DNA of 55,950 nucleotides, from NCBI GenBank assembly GCA_021821365.1, contig JAKACN010000003.1, forward strand, positions 1 through 55,950, in the 5' to 3' direction. Made by a program: the position numbers and the translations under genes. Source of the DNA: Pseudomonadota bacterium (lineage in GTDB: Bacteria; Pseudomonadota; Gammaproteobacteria; Burkholderiales; Burkholderiaceae_D). Shown here piece by piece: positions 48,973 to 55,950 of the stretch. Every line of letters starts with the position of its first letter. The first letter of the stretch is position 1. Below the pieces are notes generated by a model. That model ran no database searches, was not told the DNA's origin, and was given only the letters and a program-made list of their open reading frames with translations.

Positions 48973-50244
48973 CTATCGCGGCTGGTCTCTGCGCAGCGTT
49001 TCGCGCATGCGGACAGCGGCGACGGAACCCGAGGCAAACGTCAACGCGGCAACGAGCCATATCGCGCTGGTCACGCCGAATGCATCGGCCACCAGCCCGG
49101 ACAGCAACGCGCCGACGGCATAGCCCAGGTCGCGCCACAGACGATAGACGCCGACAGTTGACGCGCGCCATGCCGGATGGACGACGTCGCCGATGGCGGC
49201 CAGAAGCGTGGGATACACCATTGCCGTACCGGCACCAAGCAGCACGGCGCCGGCAACGAAGCTAACGAATGCCGCCGTCATGGCCATAATGGCGATGCCG
49301 ATTGCCTGCACCCACATGCCAACCACGATCAACCCCTTGCGGCCGATCCGGTCCGACAATGCGCCGGTGAAGAGCTGGCAGATTCCCCACACGGCCGGGT
49401 AGATCGCGGCCAGCATCCCGATCTGTGCGAATGTCATGCCGGCGGCGGCAAATACCAGGGGGAACAAGCCCCACGCCATGCCATCGTTGAGGTTGTTCAC
49501 GAGCCCGGCCTGGCTGATTGAGGACAGCTCGCGGTCGCGCCAGCTCGTGCGCAAGAAGATCTCGCGCTGGGAGGGCGTTCTACCGCCGTGTTGCTGCGCG
49601 GCCGATGCCGCTTCGTGGTGCGCATGGGCCCGCGTTTCACGCACAACGAAGACAGAGAGCAGCAAACCGCATACGGCGAAAATGACTCCGAGATAGAAGG
49701 GTTCCGGACGCAATCCATAGCGTGCGGCTATCCATCCGGTCGCGAGCGCCGCGACGGCGACTGCGAAGTAACCGGCAAACTCGTTGATCCCCATCGCCGT
49801 GCCGCGCTTGTTCGGCCCGGCCAAGTCGATCTTCATGATGACGGTGGTTGACCACGTCAAGCCCTGACTGATGCCCAGCAGGGCATTGGCGAACAGCACC
49901 CAATTCCAGGACGGCGCCCACATCAGCAGAAACGGCACCGGGACGGCGACCAGCCAGCCGGTCACGAGGACCGTCTTGCGGCCGTAGCTGTCCGAACAAC
50001 GACCGGCGACATAATTCGTCATCGCCTTCGTGATGCCGAAGACAACGATGAACGACAGGATCGCGGTATGCGCGACGAGCCGGAAATCCTGTTCGGCAAT
50101 CGCGGGCAAGATGCTGCGCTCCATCCCGACCATCGCGCCGACGAAAGCATTGACCAGCACCAGCAAACTGAATTGCCGCCAGTTCGCGCGCAATCCGAGC
50201 GCAAGCCCGGCGTCGTTGTCCCGCATCGATGGTACGGCGCTCAT
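48973..50244 (-). CDS. Major facilitator superfamily transporter
   Basis: A 423-residue inner-membrane carrier with 12 predicted segments. MFS signatures appear in both halves (VAGRCSDSYGRKTVLVTGW after segment 2; GALSDRIGRKGLIVVGMW in the second half). The central loop is His-rich (RAHAHHEAASAAQQHGG). ATG 50244 lies 4 bp after the stop of the upstream metallo-beta-lactamase-fold gene, so the two form an operon. A start further up would lie inside that gene. The substrate is unknown. The partner enzyme suggests a sulfur compound. Confidence 0.9.
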   Translation of the reverse strand: MSAVPSMRDNDAGLALGLRANWRQFSLLVLVNAFVGAMVGMERSILPAIAEQDFRLVAHTAILSFIVVFGITKAMTNYVAGRCSDSYGRKTVLVTGWLVAVPVPFLLMWAPSWNWVLFANALLGISQGLTWSTTVIMKIDLAGPNKRGTAMGINEFAGYFAVAVAALATGWIAARYGLRPEPFYLGVIFAVCGLLLSVFVVRETRAHAHHEAASAAQQHGGRTPSQREIFLRTSWRDRELSSISQAGLVNNLNDGMAWGLFPLVFAAAGMTFAQIGMLAAIYPAVWGICQLFTGALSDRIGRKGLIVVGMWVQAIGIAIMAMTAAFVSFVAGAVLLGAGTAMVYPTLLAAIGDVVHPAWRASTVGVYRLWRDLGYAVGALLSGLVADAFGVTSAIWLVAALTFASGSVAAVRMRETLRRDQPR

Positions 50245-50248
50245 GATG

Positions 50249-50992
50249 TCAGGCGAAGGTATGTTGGCCGAGATTGGCGGCAATCAGGCGCTCCATGTCC
50301 GCCGGCCTTGCAGGCACGCTGGCCGTGACGGCAGCAATGAAGTCTTCCCGCCCCAGCGACAGCAGCGGATTGGCGCGCCGCTCGAAACCCAGCGTGGACA
50401 GCGGTTTGCCCGATATGTCCGCGCCGCACGGACTGCCGGCGGTATGTCCGGGGAAAATCTCGAGATCGTCCGGCAATGCCAGCAACCTCTCGTGCAGGCT
50501 TTCCCAAAGCCGGCCGGCCATTTCGTACTCGCGTCCGGCCAGGTCCGGCCGCCCGACCGAGCCGACGAACAGCGTATCGCCGGTCAAGATGAACCATGGT
50601 GCCGGGCCGCGCCGGTGATCGGCCACCAGCAAGCAAATGCTGTCTCCCGTGTGTCCGGGCGTATGCAGCACCTCGACGCGGGTATTGCCAGCCATGAGCA
50701 CGTCACCGTCGTTCAGCGGCGAAAAGGCATAAGCGGTCTTGCCGCGATTACTCGCATGCAGCAGATAGTCGGCGCCAGCCTGTTCGGCCAGCGCGCGGCC
50801 ACCGGACAAGTGATCGGCGTGGATGTGCGTATCGAACACGAACGTGATGGCGACGTTGAGCTTCTGTGCCTGCGTCAGGTACCAGGCCTCGTCGCCCGCG
50901 AGAACATCGACGGCGACTGCCTTGCCGAGCCCGCCGCAGCCAAAGAAATACGAAATGGAAGCGTCGTCGTTGACGCGTTGCTTGAAGAACAT
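50249..50992 (-). CDS. Metallo-beta-lactamase-fold hydrolase, ETHE1/persulfide-dioxygenase-like
   Basis: A 247-residue metalloenzyme. Metal-binding motifs are THIHADHLSG, LHTPGHTGDS, GDTLFVGSVGRPDL and EIFPGHTAGSPCG. The order and the GRPDL step resemble ETHE1/Blh persulfide dioxygenases and glyoxalase-II-like enzymes. The frame is open up to 51160, but ATG 50992 has CAGGAGACGACT directly ahead and gives the family N-terminus (MFFKQRVNDDASISYFFGCG). It forms an operon with the MFS gene. An inverted repeat overlaps its likely promoter at 51190-51207. Confidence 0.87.
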   Translation of the reverse strand: MFFKQRVNDDASISYFFGCGGLGKAVAVDVLAGDEAWYLTQAQKLNVAITFVFDTHIHADHLSGGRALAEQAGADYLLHASNRGKTAYAFSPLNDGDVLMAGNTRVEVLHTPGHTGDSICLLVADHRRGPAPWFILTGDTLFVGSVGRPDLAGREYEMAGRLWESLHERLLALPDDLEIFPGHTAGSPCGADISGKPLSTLGFERRANPLLSLGREDFIAAVTASVPARPADMERLIAANLGQHTFA

Positions 50993-51189
50993 AGTCGTCT
51001 CCTGACATATCAAGGTCTTGTTGTCCATTCGCACCAGCCCGTCAGTTCCCTGAGCGCGCATCCATGCAGGCGCCGCACACAATGGCGGGGCCGGGTGCAA
51101 TCCGTTACGGGTCATTTCATTGCCGCAAGGCGCGGTGCCGAGGGTGAACCGTGCTTGCACGGGTGCGCGTCTCCGAAATCCATAAAGCT

Positions 51190-51226
51190 AATAATCTAAC
51201 GATTATTGGATTGTAATGTAATCTAC
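51190..51226 (-). promoter_or_regulatory. Promoter with inverted-repeat operator for the metallo-beta-lactamase/MFS operon
   Basis: AATAATC (51190-51196) and GATTATT (51201-51207) are perfect 7-bp arms around TAAC. On the minus strand a -35 (TTGCGT, complement of about 51225-51230) and a 17-bp spacer put AATAAT, the repeat's own arm, at the -10 position. A repressor here would block transcription. ArsR-type sulfide sensors such as BigR use similar AT-rich repeats. The 5' leader would be about 190 bases. Confidence 0.5.
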
Positions 51227-51265
51227 GCAAGACTTCGACGTCAAGGGAAAATGTGCCGGCGCGCC

Positions 51266-54200
51266 TTAAATGCGCTCTGTCTCGCGTGTGTCTTGCCTAT
51301 CGCCGAACTGTTGCACGAAGTCCTGCAGCGCCCGCATGGCAGACCCCAGCTCTTCGACCAATTGCGTCGCCGCGTTGCCGTGACCTTGTCTCAATGCCGC
51401 GATGAGCGAAGCGACCACGGACGCAAGATGCGAAATCCGGAGAAACCTGGCGGCACCATGAATGCCATGCAGGGCCTCCATCACCTCCGCCGGATCGGCG
51501 GTCTCAAGACGGCACACGACTTCATCGACGGTGTCGCGGTAAGTCGTGACGAATTGCTGCAGCAGCTCGGCATAGTTATTCTTGTTGCCGTTGAAGATCT
51601 CCAGGCCCGCAGCGAGGTCGACCACCGGCAGCGCGACGCCCCGCATCCGCTCCTCGCGGGCGGGGTCATCCGCCACGGACTGCTGCTGCGGACAATGGCG
51701 CAAGCCGACCAGGACGGCGAGCAGGCCGGAGATGTCGATCGGCTTGACGAGATGCGCGTTCATGCCGGCGTTCCGCGACCTTTCGATGTCATCGGCCAGC
51801 GCATCGGCGGTGACCGCGATGATCGGCAGATCGTGCCGACCGAATTCTTCCCGGATGATCCGTGTCGCTGCATAGCCGTCCATGACGGGCATGTGAATGT
51901 CCATCAGGATGGCGTCGAAGTCCTGGCCGGAATCGCGCAATGCGTCGATGGCTTCCAGCCCGTTGGCGGTGACGACGACCGCGGCGCCTGCCTGTCTCAG
52001 AAGGTGTTCGATGACCTGCCGGTTGATGGCATTGTCCTCGGCAATCAGCACGCGCATGCCGGCAAGGCGCTGGCTTGCCTCCTGATGTGCGATCGGCGCC
52101 TCCGCGACCTCGATCCCGCGCGCCCTGCGAACCGCGTCGCTCAGGCTTGCCGCCGTCACCGGCTTGGCCAGCACGCCCCGCACATCGAGGCCGTCACTCG
52201 CCGCGGCCGCCTCTCCCACCTCGTGGCCGCTCGCCATGAGCAGCACTGTCGGCAGGCGAATGGCAGGGTCATCATGCACCCGCCGGAGCATCTCGATGCC
52301 ATCCATCGCAGGCATGTGCCAGTCGAGCAGCATCAGGTCGTACTCCCGCCCATGAGGCGCGCCCAGCCGCAGCTTCTCCAGCCCCGCCGCGGCGGAGCGG
52401 GCCACCGTCGCATGCCAGCCAAAGGCGGAGCAGGTCCGCTCCAGGATATCGCCGATTAAAGGATGATCGTCGACGACGAGCAGATGAAGTTCACTCGGGT
52501 CCCGCTCCGCCGGGGCTGATCGCGCATCCTCGGGCAGGGCCAGGTTCACGCTGAAGCCGAAGGTCGTGCCTTTTCCCACGGCACTCTCGACCGTAATGCG
52601 GGCTCCCATCAGCTCGACCAGCCTGGCGCTGATCGCCAGGCCGAGTCCCGCACCGCCATATTTTCGCGCCCGGGACGGGTCTCCTTGCGAAAACACGTCA
52701 AATATCCGGCCCAGATATTCTTCCGGAATGCCGATGCCGGTATCCCGAACGGTGAATTGCACGGTGACCTGTCCGTCCTGCCGCGAGCACGGATGGACCG
52801 ATACCACGAGATCGCCGGCCTCGGTGAATTTGGCGGCGTTGCCGGCCAGATTGACCAGGATCTGTTGCAGCCGCAGTGCGTCGCCGATCAGCGTGGCAGG
52901 CATATCCGGCGCCACATCAAACACCATTTCAACCGGCTTGTCGCGCAAGGCGCTGCAGGCGACCGCCGCCACGCGCTGAAGGAGCGCATCCAGGGAAAAC
53001 GGCGCCTGATCGAGACGCAGTGCGCCCGCCTCGATCCTGGACAAGTCCAGGATGTCGCCGATCAGCAGGGACAAGGTCTGGGCCGACAGATGGAGATTGT
53101 CGACATATTCGCGCTGGACCGGATTCAATCGGGAATCGGCGATCAGCCGCGCCAGGCTGACGACGGCGTTCAACGGATTGCGGATCTCATGGGAGATCGT
53201 CGCCAGGAATGTGCTTTTGGCGCGGCTGGCCGATTCCGCATCCCGCGCTTTCACCGTGAGCTCGGCGTTCAGCGAGGCGATTTCCTGCGTTCGCTGTTCG
53301 ACCCGTTGTTCCAGCAGTTCACGCTGCTTGACAAGCTCTTCGCGGGCTCGCAACGACTGCATTCCGTACGCCAGGTTCGCGGCCAGCTCTTCCAGCAGCT
53401 TGAGCTCTTCCCGATGAAATGCATCGGCACTCGTCGAGCACAGCACAAGGGCACCAGAAGTCTGTCCATCGACGATGAGCGGAAGCGCCACCCAGGTACA
53501 GCCGTCCTGCCGCTGGGCGCCGTCGCTGCAGGATGAGACGGCCGGATCGCATGGGCACGCGTGACGCGCGTGAGCGATGCCGCTGCCGATGGCCGTATCG
53601 GCCAGTGCGCGCGCGAAATCCTGCATGGCTTGCGAGGTCAGGTGCAGACCGCATGGGCCGGTGTCGTCGCGCCGACGTTGCGCATTCTTCCGGCCCGTCC
53701 TCGCATCGCGCGGCAGGATATCGACCGATGCGACCAGGTAGCCGCCGGACTCGACCAGGATGCGGCAAAGATGATTGAACAGTTCGCACTCGCTGGTGGC
53801 CTGCACCATGCTGATATTGCAGTCGCTGAGAAGGCGCAGCGTGCGGTTGAGCCGCTTCTGCCGATCCCGCAGGCCGCTGATGTAGCCACCCATCAGCGCA
53901 AACCAGGGCAGGGTGATCGCCAGCGCGACCCATTGCAGAAGTTCCAGCTGCAGATCGAGCTTATGCCGCTTGAAATGCCACAGCAGTGCGATCAGTGCGC
54001 CATAGGCAAGCAGGATTCCGACCGCGTGCCACAGCAAGGCGCGACGCGTCAGCCGCAGCACGCCAAACAGGAAGATCATCAGCAGGACGATCAGGAATAC
54101 CGCGCGCCCCTGGTCGGCGCGGTACATCGCGTAAGCGATGACGGCCGTCGCGCTCCACATCTGGAACCGTGTGAGGCTGGGATCGGCAAACTTCCGGTTC

Positions 54201-54571
54201 ACTCCGGAACAGAACAGGATGAAGAACAGGGCGCAGAGGAAAAGAATGAGCGCCGCGCTCTGAAAGAAGGCGGAGAATGACAGCACGCCTTGCAGGGCAC
54301 AGGCAAACAGCAGGCCGATGACGAGCAGGGACGACCCCGCCGCAATGTAATAGCGTTGTATTCGCAGCGTCTGATTGGCATCGTCCTGGCACTTCGACAG
54401 AAAGCGCCTCATCTGCCTTCGAAGCACGGCCGTCTCCTTGTTATTTCTATATGCCTGCCCCAGCCTTGCCGTCATCCGAAATGCCATCGGATCATGCGTC
54501 ATGGCGGCGATGCCTGCGGGCCGAACCCGGAAGCCGCCGTACTCTGGCCGCAATGCAGCATCATCGCCCAT
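51266..54571 (-). CDS. Hybrid histidine kinase (membrane sensor, GAF, HisKA, two receivers, Hpt)
   Basis: A 1101-residue sensor. Six or so membrane segments lie between about 80 and 230. A GAF-like domain follows (about 255-400) with a Cys-rich patch (ARHACPCDPAVSSC), then a coiled coil. The kinase has His461 in ATISHEIRNPLNAVVSLARL and ATPase boxes NLAGNAAKFTEAG, RDTGIGIP and GGAGLGLAIS. Receiver 1 has Asp750 and receiver 2 has Asp891. The C-terminal Hpt has His1035 in EALHGIHGAARFLRI, where the usual HxxKG lysine is His. The frame extends upstream, but ATG 54571 (MGDDAALRPEY) is the best start. It resembles BarA-type phosphorelay kinases. The output regulator is not in the window. Confidence 0.88.
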   Translation of the reverse strand: MGDDAALRPEYGGFRVRPAGIAAMTHDPMAFRMTARLGQAYRNNKETAVLRRQMRRFLSKCQDDANQTLRIQRYYIAAGSSLLVIGLLFACALQGVLSFSAFFQSAALILFLCALFFILFCSGVNRKFADPSLTRFQMWSATAVIAYAMYRADQGRAVFLIVLLMIFLFGVLRLTRRALLWHAVGILLAYGALIALLWHFKRHKLDLQLELLQWVALAITLPWFALMGGYISGLRDRQKRLNRTLRLLSDCNISMVQATSECELFNHLCRILVESGGYLVASVDILPRDARTGRKNAQRRRDDTGPCGLHLTSQAMQDFARALADTAIGSGIAHARHACPCDPAVSSCSDGAQRQDGCTWVALPLIVDGQTSGALVLCSTSADAFHREELKLLEELAANLAYGMQSLRAREELVKQRELLEQRVEQRTQEIASLNAELTVKARDAESASRAKSTFLATISHEIRNPLNAVVSLARLIADSRLNPVQREYVDNLHLSAQTLSLLIGDILDLSRIEAGALRLDQAPFSLDALLQRVAAVACSALRDKPVEMVFDVAPDMPATLIGDALRLQQILVNLAGNAAKFTEAGDLVVSVHPCSRQDGQVTVQFTVRDTGIGIPEEYLGRIFDVFSQGDPSRARKYGGAGLGLAISARLVELMGARITVESAVGKGTTFGFSVNLALPEDARSAPAERDPSELHLLVVDDHPLIGDILERTCSAFGWHATVARSAAAGLEKLRLGAPHGREYDLMLLDWHMPAMDGIEMLRRVHDDPAIRLPTVLLMASGHEVGEAAAASDGLDVRGVLAKPVTAASLSDAVRRARGIEVAEAPIAHQEASQRLAGMRVLIAEDNAINRQVIEHLLRQAGAAVVVTANGLEAIDALRDSGQDFDAILMDIHMPVMDGYAATRIIREEFGRHDLPIIAVTADALADDIERSRNAGMNAHLVKPIDISGLLAVLVGLRHCPQQQSVADDPAREERMRGVALPVVDLAAGLEIFNGNKNNYAELLQQFVTTYRDTVDEVVCRLETADPAEVMEALHGIHGAARFLRISHLASVVASLIAALRQGHGNAATQLVEELGSAMRALQDFVQQFGDRQDTRETERI

Positions 54572-54679
54572 GGAAACCCCATGGAATGTATGGGAGAACT
54601 TGATCCAAGTCAACGAAGGTGCGCGTCGTCGTGAAGAGGTCGTGTCAAGCGGCCTTCGGCAGACCGGATTGCCCCCTGT

Positions 54680-54685
54680 TATACT
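54680..54685 (+). promoter_or_regulatory. Candidate -10 element of the trpS leader transcript
   Basis: TATACT (54680-54685) is a good -10 match. The start site would fall near 54691-54693, at or just before the leader-peptide ATG, so the leader peptide may be translated from a leaderless or nearly leaderless mRNA. A -35 match upstream (TTCGGC) is weak. Confidence 0.45.
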
Positions 54686-54692
54686 GTCGCCC

Positions 54693-54743
54693 ATGGAAAA
54701 GACATCGCAATGCCTCTGCAACCGCCATTGGTGGCGCGCCTGA
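54693..54743 (+). CDS. trpL: Trp leader peptide with tandem Trp codons (attenuator)
   Basis: A 16-residue reading frame, [16 protein letters not shown], runs ATG to TGA and has two adjacent TGG codons (54729-54734) three codons before its stop. Two Trp in 16 residues is far above chance, and the position before a Trp-tRNA synthetase gene is what Trp-sensing attenuation needs. Hairpin-forming segments lie inside and after the frame. When charged tRNA-Trp is low, ribosomes would stall at the TGG pair. The gene symbol is by analogy. Confidence 0.8.
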
Positions 54744-54815
54744 CACAGGCGGCCAGTTTCCATTCCCATTGTTGTTAACTGAGATGCCGCCGGCTCTGGC
54801 GGCATTGTCATTTTT
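54722..54815 (+). terminator. Transcription attenuator of trpS with mutually exclusive hairpins
   Basis: Segments: 1, CCGCC 54722-54726; 3, GGCGGC 54748-54753; 4, GCCGCC 54786-54791; 5, GGCGGC 54798-54803. The terminator is 4:5, an 8-bp perfect stem (ATGCCGCC 54784-54791 with GGCGGCAT 54798-54805), followed by TGTCATTTTT. Segment 3 can pair with 1 or with 4. A ribosome stalled at the TGG codons hides segment 1 and frees 3 to pair with 4, which prevents the terminator. A ribosome reaching the stop at 54743 covers segment 3 and lets 4:5 form. Confidence 0.75.
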
Positions 54816-54864
54816 GCAGCATGTCTACAGCACCGGCGGCCTCCCGACCTTATCCGGAGTCTCC

Positions 54865-55908
54865 ATGACCACAACCTCTGCAAAGCCCATCGTCCTCACC
54901 GGCGACCGCACGACCGGTCCCCTGCATCTCGGCCATTACGTCGGCTCCCTGCGTTCGCGCGTGCAGCTGCAGGATCAAGCACAACAGTTCCTGCTCCTGG
55001 CCGATGCCCAGGCGATGACCGACAACGCAGGCAAGCACCAGAAAGTCACGGAGAACGTGATTGAAGTCGCACTCGATTATCTTGCCGTCGGCATCGACCC
55101 GGCGAAGTCCACGATCTTCATCCAATCGCAGGTGCCCGAGCTCGCCGAATTGTCGCAATACCTGATGAACCTGGTCACCGTATCTCGCCTTGAGCGCAAT
55201 CCGACCATCAAGGACGAGATCCGGCAACGCGGCTTCGAGCGCGACATTCCCGCCGGATTTCTCGCCTATCCGGTCAGCCAGGCGGCAGACATCACGGCAT
55301 TCAGGGCACGGCTGGTCCCGGTCGGCGATGACCAGTTGCCGATGATCGAGCAAACCAATGAACTGGTCCGCAGGTTCAACAGCACGGTGGGGCAGGATGT
55401 CCTGGTTGAGTGCGAAGCCGTCCTTTCGTGTGTCACGCGCCTGCCCGGCATCGATGGCAAGGCAAAAATGAGCAAGTCGCTCGGCAATGCGATCGCACTG
55501 GGCGCAAGCGAAGACGAGATCCGCAAGGCGGTGAACCTCATGTACACCGATCCCAATCATCTGCGTGTCGATGACCCGGGGCAGGTGGAAGGCAATGTCG
55601 TGTTTGCCTTTCTCGATGCCTTCGAGACGGATGTCGCGAAGCTCGACGCCCTGAAGGCACACTATCGGCGCGGGGGACTTGGCGACACGGTGCTGAAACG
55701 GCTCCTCAATGAGCACCTGCAGGAAGCCATCCGGCCGATTCGCGCGGAGCGCGAACGCCTGGCGACCGACCGGGGAGAAGTGCTGCGGATTCTGCGCGTG
55801 GGGACGGAGCGAGCCAGGGATGCGGCTGCGCGCACACTCTCGGCTGTGAAACGCGCGCTTGGCTTGAACTACTTCGATCACACGGAACTGGCGAGCGGCG
55901 CGCGGTAA
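54865..55908 (+). CDS. trpS: Tryptophanyl-tRNA synthetase
   Basis: A 347-residue class I synthetase that charges tRNA-Trp. The HIGH-type motif is in [13 protein letters not shown], and the KMSKS loop is exact in [35 protein letters not shown] is the usual middle. Length is normal for bacterial TrpRS. The frame is open upstream, but ATG 54865 has CCGGAGTCTCC ahead and gives the family N-terminus ([17 protein letters not shown]). It is divergent from the hybrid kinase gene. Control is probably by the Trp-codon attenuator just upstream, so synthetase level would rise when charged tRNA-Trp falls. Confidence 0.96.
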
Positions 55909-55950
55909 TCTTTTTCGACGGCAATATCCGTCCGCACGACGGGCATTACG

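What the first reader, a model, noticed from the sequence alone, without database searches (positions are those of the whole stretch)
54680..54865. Ribosome-mediated, Trp-codon attenuator in front of trpS
A 16-residue leader frame with tandem TGG codons, a GC-rich terminator hairpin with T-rich tail and a competing antiterminator segment lie in the right order upstream of trpS. The geometry works: stalling at 54729-54734 frees segment 3 (54748-54753) to pair with segment 4, while reading to the stop at 54743 hides it. Trp-codon attenuation is best known for trp biosynthesis operons. In Gram-positive bacteria trpS is usually controlled by a T-box instead. The leader may also be nearly leaderless.
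Basis: partly seen in the sequence, partly recalled or inferred. Interest (0 to 1): 0.85.

Follow-up and report, generated by a model that had tools for sequence, protein, structure and literature searches.

The report
Tryptophan-sensing switch before a tRNA-charging gene
The stretch in front of a second tryptophanyl-tRNA synthetase gene is very probably a real on/off switch in which a ribosome translating a tiny peptide senses tryptophan shortage; it is shared by many related bacteria, and it carries an extra, co-varying RNA segment that textbook switches of this kind lack.

Summary
Before trpS (54865-55908) lie a 16-codon leader [16 protein letters not shown], a predicted 1:2 hairpin, an antiterminator (54748-54753 with 54786-54791) and an intrinsic terminator (54783-54815). 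64 of 81 examined loci of this TrpRS type carry a Trp-codon leader, and the 38 best hits of a model of the element in 145 family genomes all lie just upstream of this gene. The leader is probably leaderless: the -10 box lies 6-8 nt before its ATG in 58 of 64 loci. The gene is often a second TrpRS (17 of 20 leader-bearing genomes; 39 of 71 family genomes). Precedents exist: Streptomyces trpS attenuators and leaderless trpL in Sinorhizobium. New here is a fifth segment (54833-54840) that pairs with the terminator's rising arm and loop, with compensatory changes reaching Chromobacteriaceae. I infer that it competes with closure of the trpS start, adding a translational gate. The pairing is well supported; that function is moderately supported across relatives and hardly at all in the window itself. 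Verdict: a new variant of a known kind.

The parts
54656..54685 (+). sigma-70-like promoter: weak -35 TCGGCA (54656-54661), -10 TATACT (54680-54685) with TG before it; predicted start about 54692-54693
   Evidence: -10 spacing to the leader ATG conserved
54693..54743 (+). leader [19 protein letters not shown], probably leaderless (ATG at or within 1-2 nt of +1)
54729..54734 (+). tandem Trp codons (sensor)
   Evidence: tandem or single Trp codon conserved at this place
54733..54742 (+). segment 1 (pairs with segment 2, 54746-54754)
   Evidence: predicted fold; a similar stem in most predicted folds of the 25 close relatives; pairs not counted by tool
54746..54758 (+). segment 2: CAGGCGGCCAGTT; GGCGGC 54748-54753 pairs with 54786-54791 (antiterminator 2:3)
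54783..54815 (+). intrinsic terminator: segment 3 (54783-54792), loop, segment 4 (54797-54806), T-rich tail
54833..54840 (+). segment 5: CCGGCGGC, complementary to 54786-54793 (terminator rising arm and first loop base); pairing conserved with compensatory changes
54841..54864 (+). segment 6: trpS ribosome-binding region; CTCC 54841-54844 can pair with GGAG 54856-54859 (weak in the window)
54865..55908 (+). trpS, second tryptophanyl-tRNA synthetase of this genome, 347 aa

Best explanation
This is a ribosome-mediated, Trp-codon transcription attenuator of a second (auxiliary) trpS. RNA polymerase starts at or next to the leader ATG and a ribosome translates the SD-less leader at once. With ample Trp-tRNA the ribosome reaches the stop and covers segment 2; segments 3 and 4 form the terminator and a leader RNA of about 120 nt is released. 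With scarce Trp-tRNA the ribosome stalls on TGG TGG, segment 2 pairs with segment 3, the terminator cannot form and trpS is transcribed, restoring Trp-tRNA charging. Added to the classical layout is segment 5, made only in read-through RNA, which pairs with the terminator's rising arm and loop. I infer that segment 3 and segment 6 (the trpS start region) compete for segment 5: if the terminator hairpin is held, 5 can close the trpS start; if segment 3 is taken by 5, the start opens. Shown by comparison of sequences: leader, promoter spacing, antiterminator core, terminator, the 3:5 pairing. Inferred: stalling, Trp response, the translational role of segment 5. The confidence given is for the attenuator core; for the translational role of segment 5 I give about 0.35 (lowered from 0.4 after rereading).
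For: Anatomy and spacing. Leader with terminal Trp codon(s) in 64 of 81 loci, peptide otherwise variable. The -10 hexamer 6-8 nt before the leader ATG in 58 of 64 loci, with two promoter types (TATACT; TTGACA-17-AACCAT). Antiterminator core GGCGGC:GCCGCC paired in 25 of 25. The 38 best model hits in 145 genomes all lie 39-106 nt upstream of the gene's match. Segment 3:5 pairing: 95.2% of 250 cells paired (0 of 500 shuffles), 14 cells with double changes (0 of 500), covariation score 0.290 (0 of 500), against 22-53% paired when slid; 56 loci mean -21.1 kcal/mol against -16.35 permuted, 0 of 20,000 permutations as low, also 0 of 20,000 within each of two groups; 49 control hairpins mean -14.2. 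Segment 5:6: 0 of 20,000 overall, 87 of 20,000 in group A, 0 of 20,000 in group B; actual segment 5 closes the start more than shuffled segment 5 (7.47 against 5.84 kcal/mol, 41 of 56, p 5e-5).
Against: No expression data. 17 of 81 loci lack a recognisable Trp leader, so the gene can live without it; the label needs 10 changes on the tree. The core 2:3 pairs are nearly invariant and give no covariation, and the window-like extension pairs in only 49% of cells of 25 relatives. For 3:5, two of the five shuffle measures are not exceptional: pairs with a double change (3; 55 of 500 shuffles reach it) and further pair types (8; 438 of 500); a locus's own partner is the best of 56 for only 5 loci in 3:5 and 4 in 5:6, since relatives share sequence. 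In the window itself segment 5 does not close the trpS start more than shuffled segment 5 (5.60 against 5.41), the modelled cost of opening the start changes little (6.8 with 3:4, 5.3 with 3:5), and the 5:6 stem lies beside, not over, the 3:5 stem. The easier start in 56 of 56 with 3:5 imposed is partly trivial, as hiding any neighbour opens a region. 3:4 is the more stable state in 45 of 56, by over 10 kcal/mol in 9, so 3:5 would need help from kinetics. 3:5 is weak or absent in Undibacterium (L052, L072, L082). Permutations are not corrected for relatedness. The model was trained on relatives of searched genomes.
Confidence: 0.87

Rival explanations
1. Same attenuator, but segment 5 has no translational role: the long 3:5 hairpin only dismantles the terminator stem in finished mRNA, for example to stabilise the 5' region or keep Rho or RNases off.
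For: In the window 3:5 and the small SD stem can coexist, 5:6 is not supported there, and 3:5 is the better supported of the two pairings.
Against: 5:6 is supported across the set. Several Janthinobacterium-type leaders (for example G005, G092, G123; sequences) keep the WW leader and a GCCGCCT/AGGCGGC complement next to the SD although the hairpin has no T tract, which suggests control at translation.
Confidence: 0.45
2. Translation-level attenuation only: the leader stall acts mainly on access to the trpS start, and the hairpin is a poor terminator.
For: The window terminator tail is interrupted (GTCATTTTT); some relatives lack a T tract.
Against: Most of the hairpins listed are GC-rich stems followed by a T-rich tail (the script asked for at least 3 T in 9), and the antiterminator core is nearly invariant.
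Confidence: 0.08
3. The leader RNA or leader peptide acts mainly in trans, as reported for rnTrpL/peTrpL of Sinorhizobium meliloti.
For: Probable leaderless leader and a released short RNA, as in S. meliloti (passages).
Against: Apart from the C-terminal Trp motif the peptide varies widely, which speaks against a conserved peptide function; trans targets were not sought.
Confidence: 0.05
4. Chance: a Trp-rich short frame before an ordinary upstream terminator.
For: Short frames and stems are common; one genome alone would not decide.
Against: Conservation in 64 of 81 loci, single occurrence of the pattern in the genome, 38 of 38 best model hits at this gene.
Confidence: 0.01

Closest known systems
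Trp-codon attenuator of trpS in Streptomyces
   Same: Candidate classical attenuator before trpS2 of S. avermitilis (PMC1262725, passages read); ribosome-mediated attenuation of an auxiliary, antibiotic-resistant TrpRS gene (Vecchione and Sello 2010; only the title seen, in a reference list; that it concerns Streptomyces is recalled)
   Different: Other phylum; segment 5 not mentioned in the passages seen; whether the Streptomyces element has one was not tested
Leaderless trpL attenuator of trpE(G), Sinorhizobium meliloti
   Same: RNA starts with the ATG of the leader ORF; Trp codons; terminator/antiterminator switch (PMC7298713, passages read)
   Different: Controls a biosynthetic gene, in Alphaproteobacteria; no segment 5 mentioned in the passages seen
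Classical trp operon attenuator (E. coli type)
   Same: Segments 1 to 4 and their order; stall on tandem Trp codons (recalled)
   Different: Probably leaderless leader, aminoacyl-tRNA synthetase target, extra segment 5
TRAP-controlled trp leader of Bacillus subtilis
   Same: Transcription attenuation plus an SD-closing structure in read-through RNA (recalled)
   Different: Sensor is a protein, not a ribosome on Trp codons

Membership tests
Ribosome-mediated amino-acid attenuator (trp type) | short leader ORF with a run of the regulating codon | tested here: met
   conserved
Ribosome-mediated amino-acid attenuator (trp type) | intrinsic terminator between leader ORF and gene | tested here: met
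   by sequence only
Ribosome-mediated amino-acid attenuator (trp type) | antiterminator that shares the terminator's rising arm | tested here: met
   core paired in 25 of 25, nearly invariant
Ribosome-mediated amino-acid attenuator (trp type) | ribosome at the stop covers segment 2, ribosome at the Trp codons does not | tested here: inconclusive
   fits by distance, from coordinates and the recalled footprint of a ribosome; not measured
Ribosome-mediated amino-acid attenuator (trp type) | read-through rises when charged tRNA-Trp falls | not testable with these tools
   needs expression data
Rfam families (4227 models) | match to a described covariance model | tested here: not met
   0 matches at E up to 1 in 50000-55950
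Streptomyces auxiliary trpS attenuator | target is a second TrpRS gene | tested here: met
   two TrpRS genes in this genome; 17 of 20 leader-bearing genomes with a second match; not universal: 32 of 71 family genomes have only this one
Streptomyces auxiliary trpS attenuator | enzyme resistant to indolmycin-like inhibitors | not tested
   no assay; residues not examined
Leaderless leader ORF (S. meliloti trpL type) | transcript begins at the leader ATG | tested here: inconclusive
   -10 box 6-8 nt upstream in 58 of 64 loci; no mapped 5' end

The most novel reading that the evidence does not exclude
A six-segment, two-tier attenuator: one leaderless Trp-codon peptide first decides termination, then, through a read-through-only segment that either pairs with the terminator's rising arm or closes the trpS start, also decides translation, so that leaky transcripts stay silent. 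Some lineages (Janthinobacterium type) would have lost the terminator's T tract and kept the translational tier alone.
Probability: 0.35. Interest if true: 0.72.

Novelty: new variant of a known kind. Interest (0 to 1): 0.55.

Why it matters
It would be a widespread betaproteobacterial route by which cells sense loss of charged tRNA-Trp and switch on a TrpRS, often a spare one, with a leader that needs no Shine-Dalgarno sequence. The co-varying segment 5 makes a clear prediction, that ribosome stalling is read twice, for termination and again for translation, which can be tested with a few base changes. If so, the textbook four-segment picture of ribosome-mediated attenuation is incomplete for this class.

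Tried and rejected
T-box or other known RNA family: no Rfam match. Other sites of the same element: five model hits not at trpS, of many weak ones, were inspected (L155-L159) and were ordinary terminators or coding sequence with no Trp leader; L161 was fetched but not inspected. A separate leader before the 400-aa TrpRS of this genome: none seen; its start follows directly on another gene, a membrane protease by my reading. Literature (nine searches of the held open-access library): no paper on a betaproteobacterial trpS attenuator was found in the listings; PMC2965389 has no occurrence of trpS in its main text. Subscription papers are not held, so this is no proof of absence. Plasmid search: distant matches to a third of the query on 4 Burkholderia replicons filed as plasmids; one was opened and lies just upstream of an annotated trpS.

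Rows dropped: L025, L067, L068 (script hits inside upstream coding sequence) and L044 (164-nt spacer) from the duplex tests; L042, L046, L047, L059, L064, L065, L071 have leaders but were not in the duplex tests, because the script needs a stop soon after Trp or found no terminator; L034 was placed by hand. That leaves 56. The 17 of 81 loci counted as without leader, by reading the sequences, are L009, L024, L025, L031, L043, L049, L053, L058, L060, L062, L066, L067, L068, L075, L076, L079, L080; L043 has a short frame with one Trp but no promoter in register and was counted as none. One search's automatic leader count in 71 genomes was too strict and partly wrong (wrong frame in G003 and G099) and is not used; sequences were read instead. 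In one search the 49 control hairpins are not clean: at least one is this leader read on the other strand. In one search the imposed hairpin was ill placed by script in a few loci (L010, L063, L073), which inflates their 3:4 values.

Full report
What is there. Reading the window, the promoter-like site has -10 TATACT at 54680-54685 preceded by TG, then seven bases, then ATG at 54693, opening [16 protein letters not shown] (stop 54741-54743). The 1:2 hairpin is predicted at 54733-54754, GGCGGC 54748-54753 can pair with GCCGCC 54786-54791, and the terminator is 54783-54806 followed by GTCATTTTT. trpS begins at 54865. Its product fits the TIGR00233 trpS model above its cut-off (237.6 against 176.75 bits).

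The gene is a second TrpRS. The genome has another match, 40% identical in its best piece, on contig C144: a 400-aa TrpRS that directly follows another gene and has no leader that I could see. Of 145 genomes of the family, 71 have a close relative of the window's TrpRS (E < 1e-100); 39 of these 71 have a second match (E up to 1e-20) and 32 do not. In 20 leader-bearing genomes reached through named loci, 17 have two matches (in one of them, G152, the second is only 37% identical and of another length). The window's host is probably a Noviherbaspirillum: G141, given as same genus, has a contig of the same length (1,034,233) as the N. massiliense record of L049. Only 3 of the 8 genomes of this genus have the gene, and the window copy groups with Massilia eurypsychrophila (98/26) and with a metagenome-assembled proteobacterium (98/87) in the tree, so lateral transfer is likely (inference).

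Conservation. I read all 80 upstream regions. With the window, 64 of 81 have a leader with Trp codon(s) near its end: WWRA or WWHA in Burkholderia, Paraburkholderia, Cupriavidus and Herbaspirillum, WWRR and similar in Massilia and others, WWWRL in Chromobacterium, and single-Trp versions in Duganella, Undibacterium and some others. Seventeen have none that I recognise. A covariance model R1 of 42 sequences was run on 145 family genomes: 130 had some match at E up to 0.1, most of them weak; the 38 matches with E up to 5.4e-7 all lie 39-106 nt upstream of this gene's match on its strand, and 43 of the 71 genes have an adjacent hit in the listed part of the output (farthest 122 nt; the list was cut, so 43 is a lower bound). 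The best match elsewhere (2.5e-6) is an ordinary terminator. Caution: some searched genomes are those of training rows (G045 has the contig length of L004's record), so recovery is partly by construction; the lack of strong hits elsewhere is not.

Leaderless leader. In a scan of distances 0-20, allowing any in-frame ATG, the best -10-like hexamer lies 6, 7 or 8 nt before the leader ATG in 58 of 64 loci (32, 23 and 3); 4 others lie at 1, 2, 3 and 12, and 2 gave nothing under the rule used (L033, L034, whose TTGACG-18-NNTGAT boxes also stand 6-7 nt away). Two promoter types, TATACT and TTGACA-17-AACCAT, keep the same spacing. This places the start at or beside the A of ATG. The precedent is S. 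meliloti trpL (PMC7298713, passages).

Antiterminator. In 25 close relatives the six core pairs are present in all 25, five of them invariant and one with a single G-U. That shows constraint, not covariation. The inner extension seen in the window is not general (49% of cells).

Segment 5. Downstream of the terminator all 25 close relatives have a stretch complementary to most of the terminator's rising arm and part of its loop. On the 25-row alignment 95.2% of 250 cells pair (shuffles: mean 92.2, 0 of 500 as high); 14 cells have double changes (0 of 500) and the covariation score is 0.290 (0 of 500). The number of pairs with a double change (3; 55 of 500) and of further pair types (8; 438 of 500) is not exceptional. 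Sliding the partner by 1-3 columns gives 22-53%. Pairs that lie in the terminator loop (54794:54832 with T-A 11, C-G 7, T-G 6, C-A 1; 54795:54831, 21 of 25 paired) cannot be explained by the terminator itself. In 56 loci the mean duplex energy is -21.1 against -16.35 kcal/mol for permuted partners, 0 of 20,000 as low, and also 0 of 20,000 within the 25 close and the 31 distant loci; a locus's own partner is the best of all for only 5 of 56, as relatives share sequence. In Chromobacteriaceae and relatives the terminator sequence is quite different, yet segment 5 follows it (L033, L034, L037, L040, L054). Control hairpins with T-rich tails from the flanks average -14.2 (n 49; 1 of them at or below the window's -24.2; 41% at or below -15, against 86% of the 56 leaders). 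3:5 is weak or absent in Undibacterium.

What segment 5 may do. It is made only after the polymerase has passed the terminator, so it should not affect that decision. In many loci it, or its 3' edge, is also complementary to the trpS ribosome-binding or start region (0 of 20,000 permutations overall, 87 of 20,000 in group A, 0 of 20,000 in group B; own partner best for 4 of 56). Actual segment 5 makes the start harder to open than dinucleotide-shuffled segment 5 (7.47 against 5.84 kcal/mol, 41 of 56 above the shuffled mean, Wilcoxon p 5e-5; group A 20 of 25, group B 21 of 31). With 3:4 imposed the start costs 9.6 kcal/mol to open on average, with 3:5 imposed 3.2, though hiding any neighbour would lower the cost. 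By these energies 3:4 is the more stable state in 45 of 56 (mean 4.8 kcal/mol; over 10 in 9), 3:5 in 11 (the window by 1.8), so a switch would have to be kinetic; that is a weakness. The window itself shows almost no effect on its start. In several Janthinobacterium-type leaders the hairpin is followed by AACAGG, not a T tract, while the WW leader and a 7-base complement (GCCGCCT/AGGCGGC) next to the SD remain, which fits control at translation. I put a second, translational gate at about 0.35 (0.4 before I reread).

Comparison. Trp-codon attenuation of trpS is known: a candidate before S. avermitilis trpS2 (PMC1262725, passages) and a report on an auxiliary TrpRS (Vecchione and Sello 2010, title in a reference list). 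The kind is therefore known. I found no report for Betaproteobacteria, nor of a fifth segment, in the listings of nine searches of open-access papers. Novelty: new variant of a known kind.

Noticed in passing
L164:658-744 (own genome, contig C306), probable trpE at L164:841: The probable trpE of the same genome (Pfam chorismate-binding match, 503-aa frame) is preceded by a Trp-rich leader frame MFLDKKRDATSLGLYEAWLWRRWQSWAD* and a hairpin followed by a T run: probably another Trp attenuator.
   Followed up: partly
L059, L065, L071; L131, L132, L135, L137, L138, L140, L144: Janthinobacterium-type leaders keep WW codons, but the leader frame runs on past segment 2 and the hairpin has no T tract: perhaps attenuation at translation only.
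   Followed up: partly
L009:2760-3000: Paraburkholderia sp. LEh10 keeps terminator and segment 5 remnants but has no Trp leader: perhaps a naturally broken switch.
   Followed up: no
L044:2837-3000: Leader with a 164-nt spacer between terminator and trpS start, against about 40-80 nt in the other loci of the duplex tests.
   Followed up: no
window 51266-54883, minus strand: A large frame that reads like a hybrid sensor histidine kinase (by eye, no family search; its start is uncertain) is divergent from trpS; the open frame runs antisense through the leader.
   Followed up: no
family genomes: In 32 of 71 genomes this TrpRS type is the only TrpRS matched, so it seems able to replace the usual 400-aa enzyme.
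   Followed up: partly
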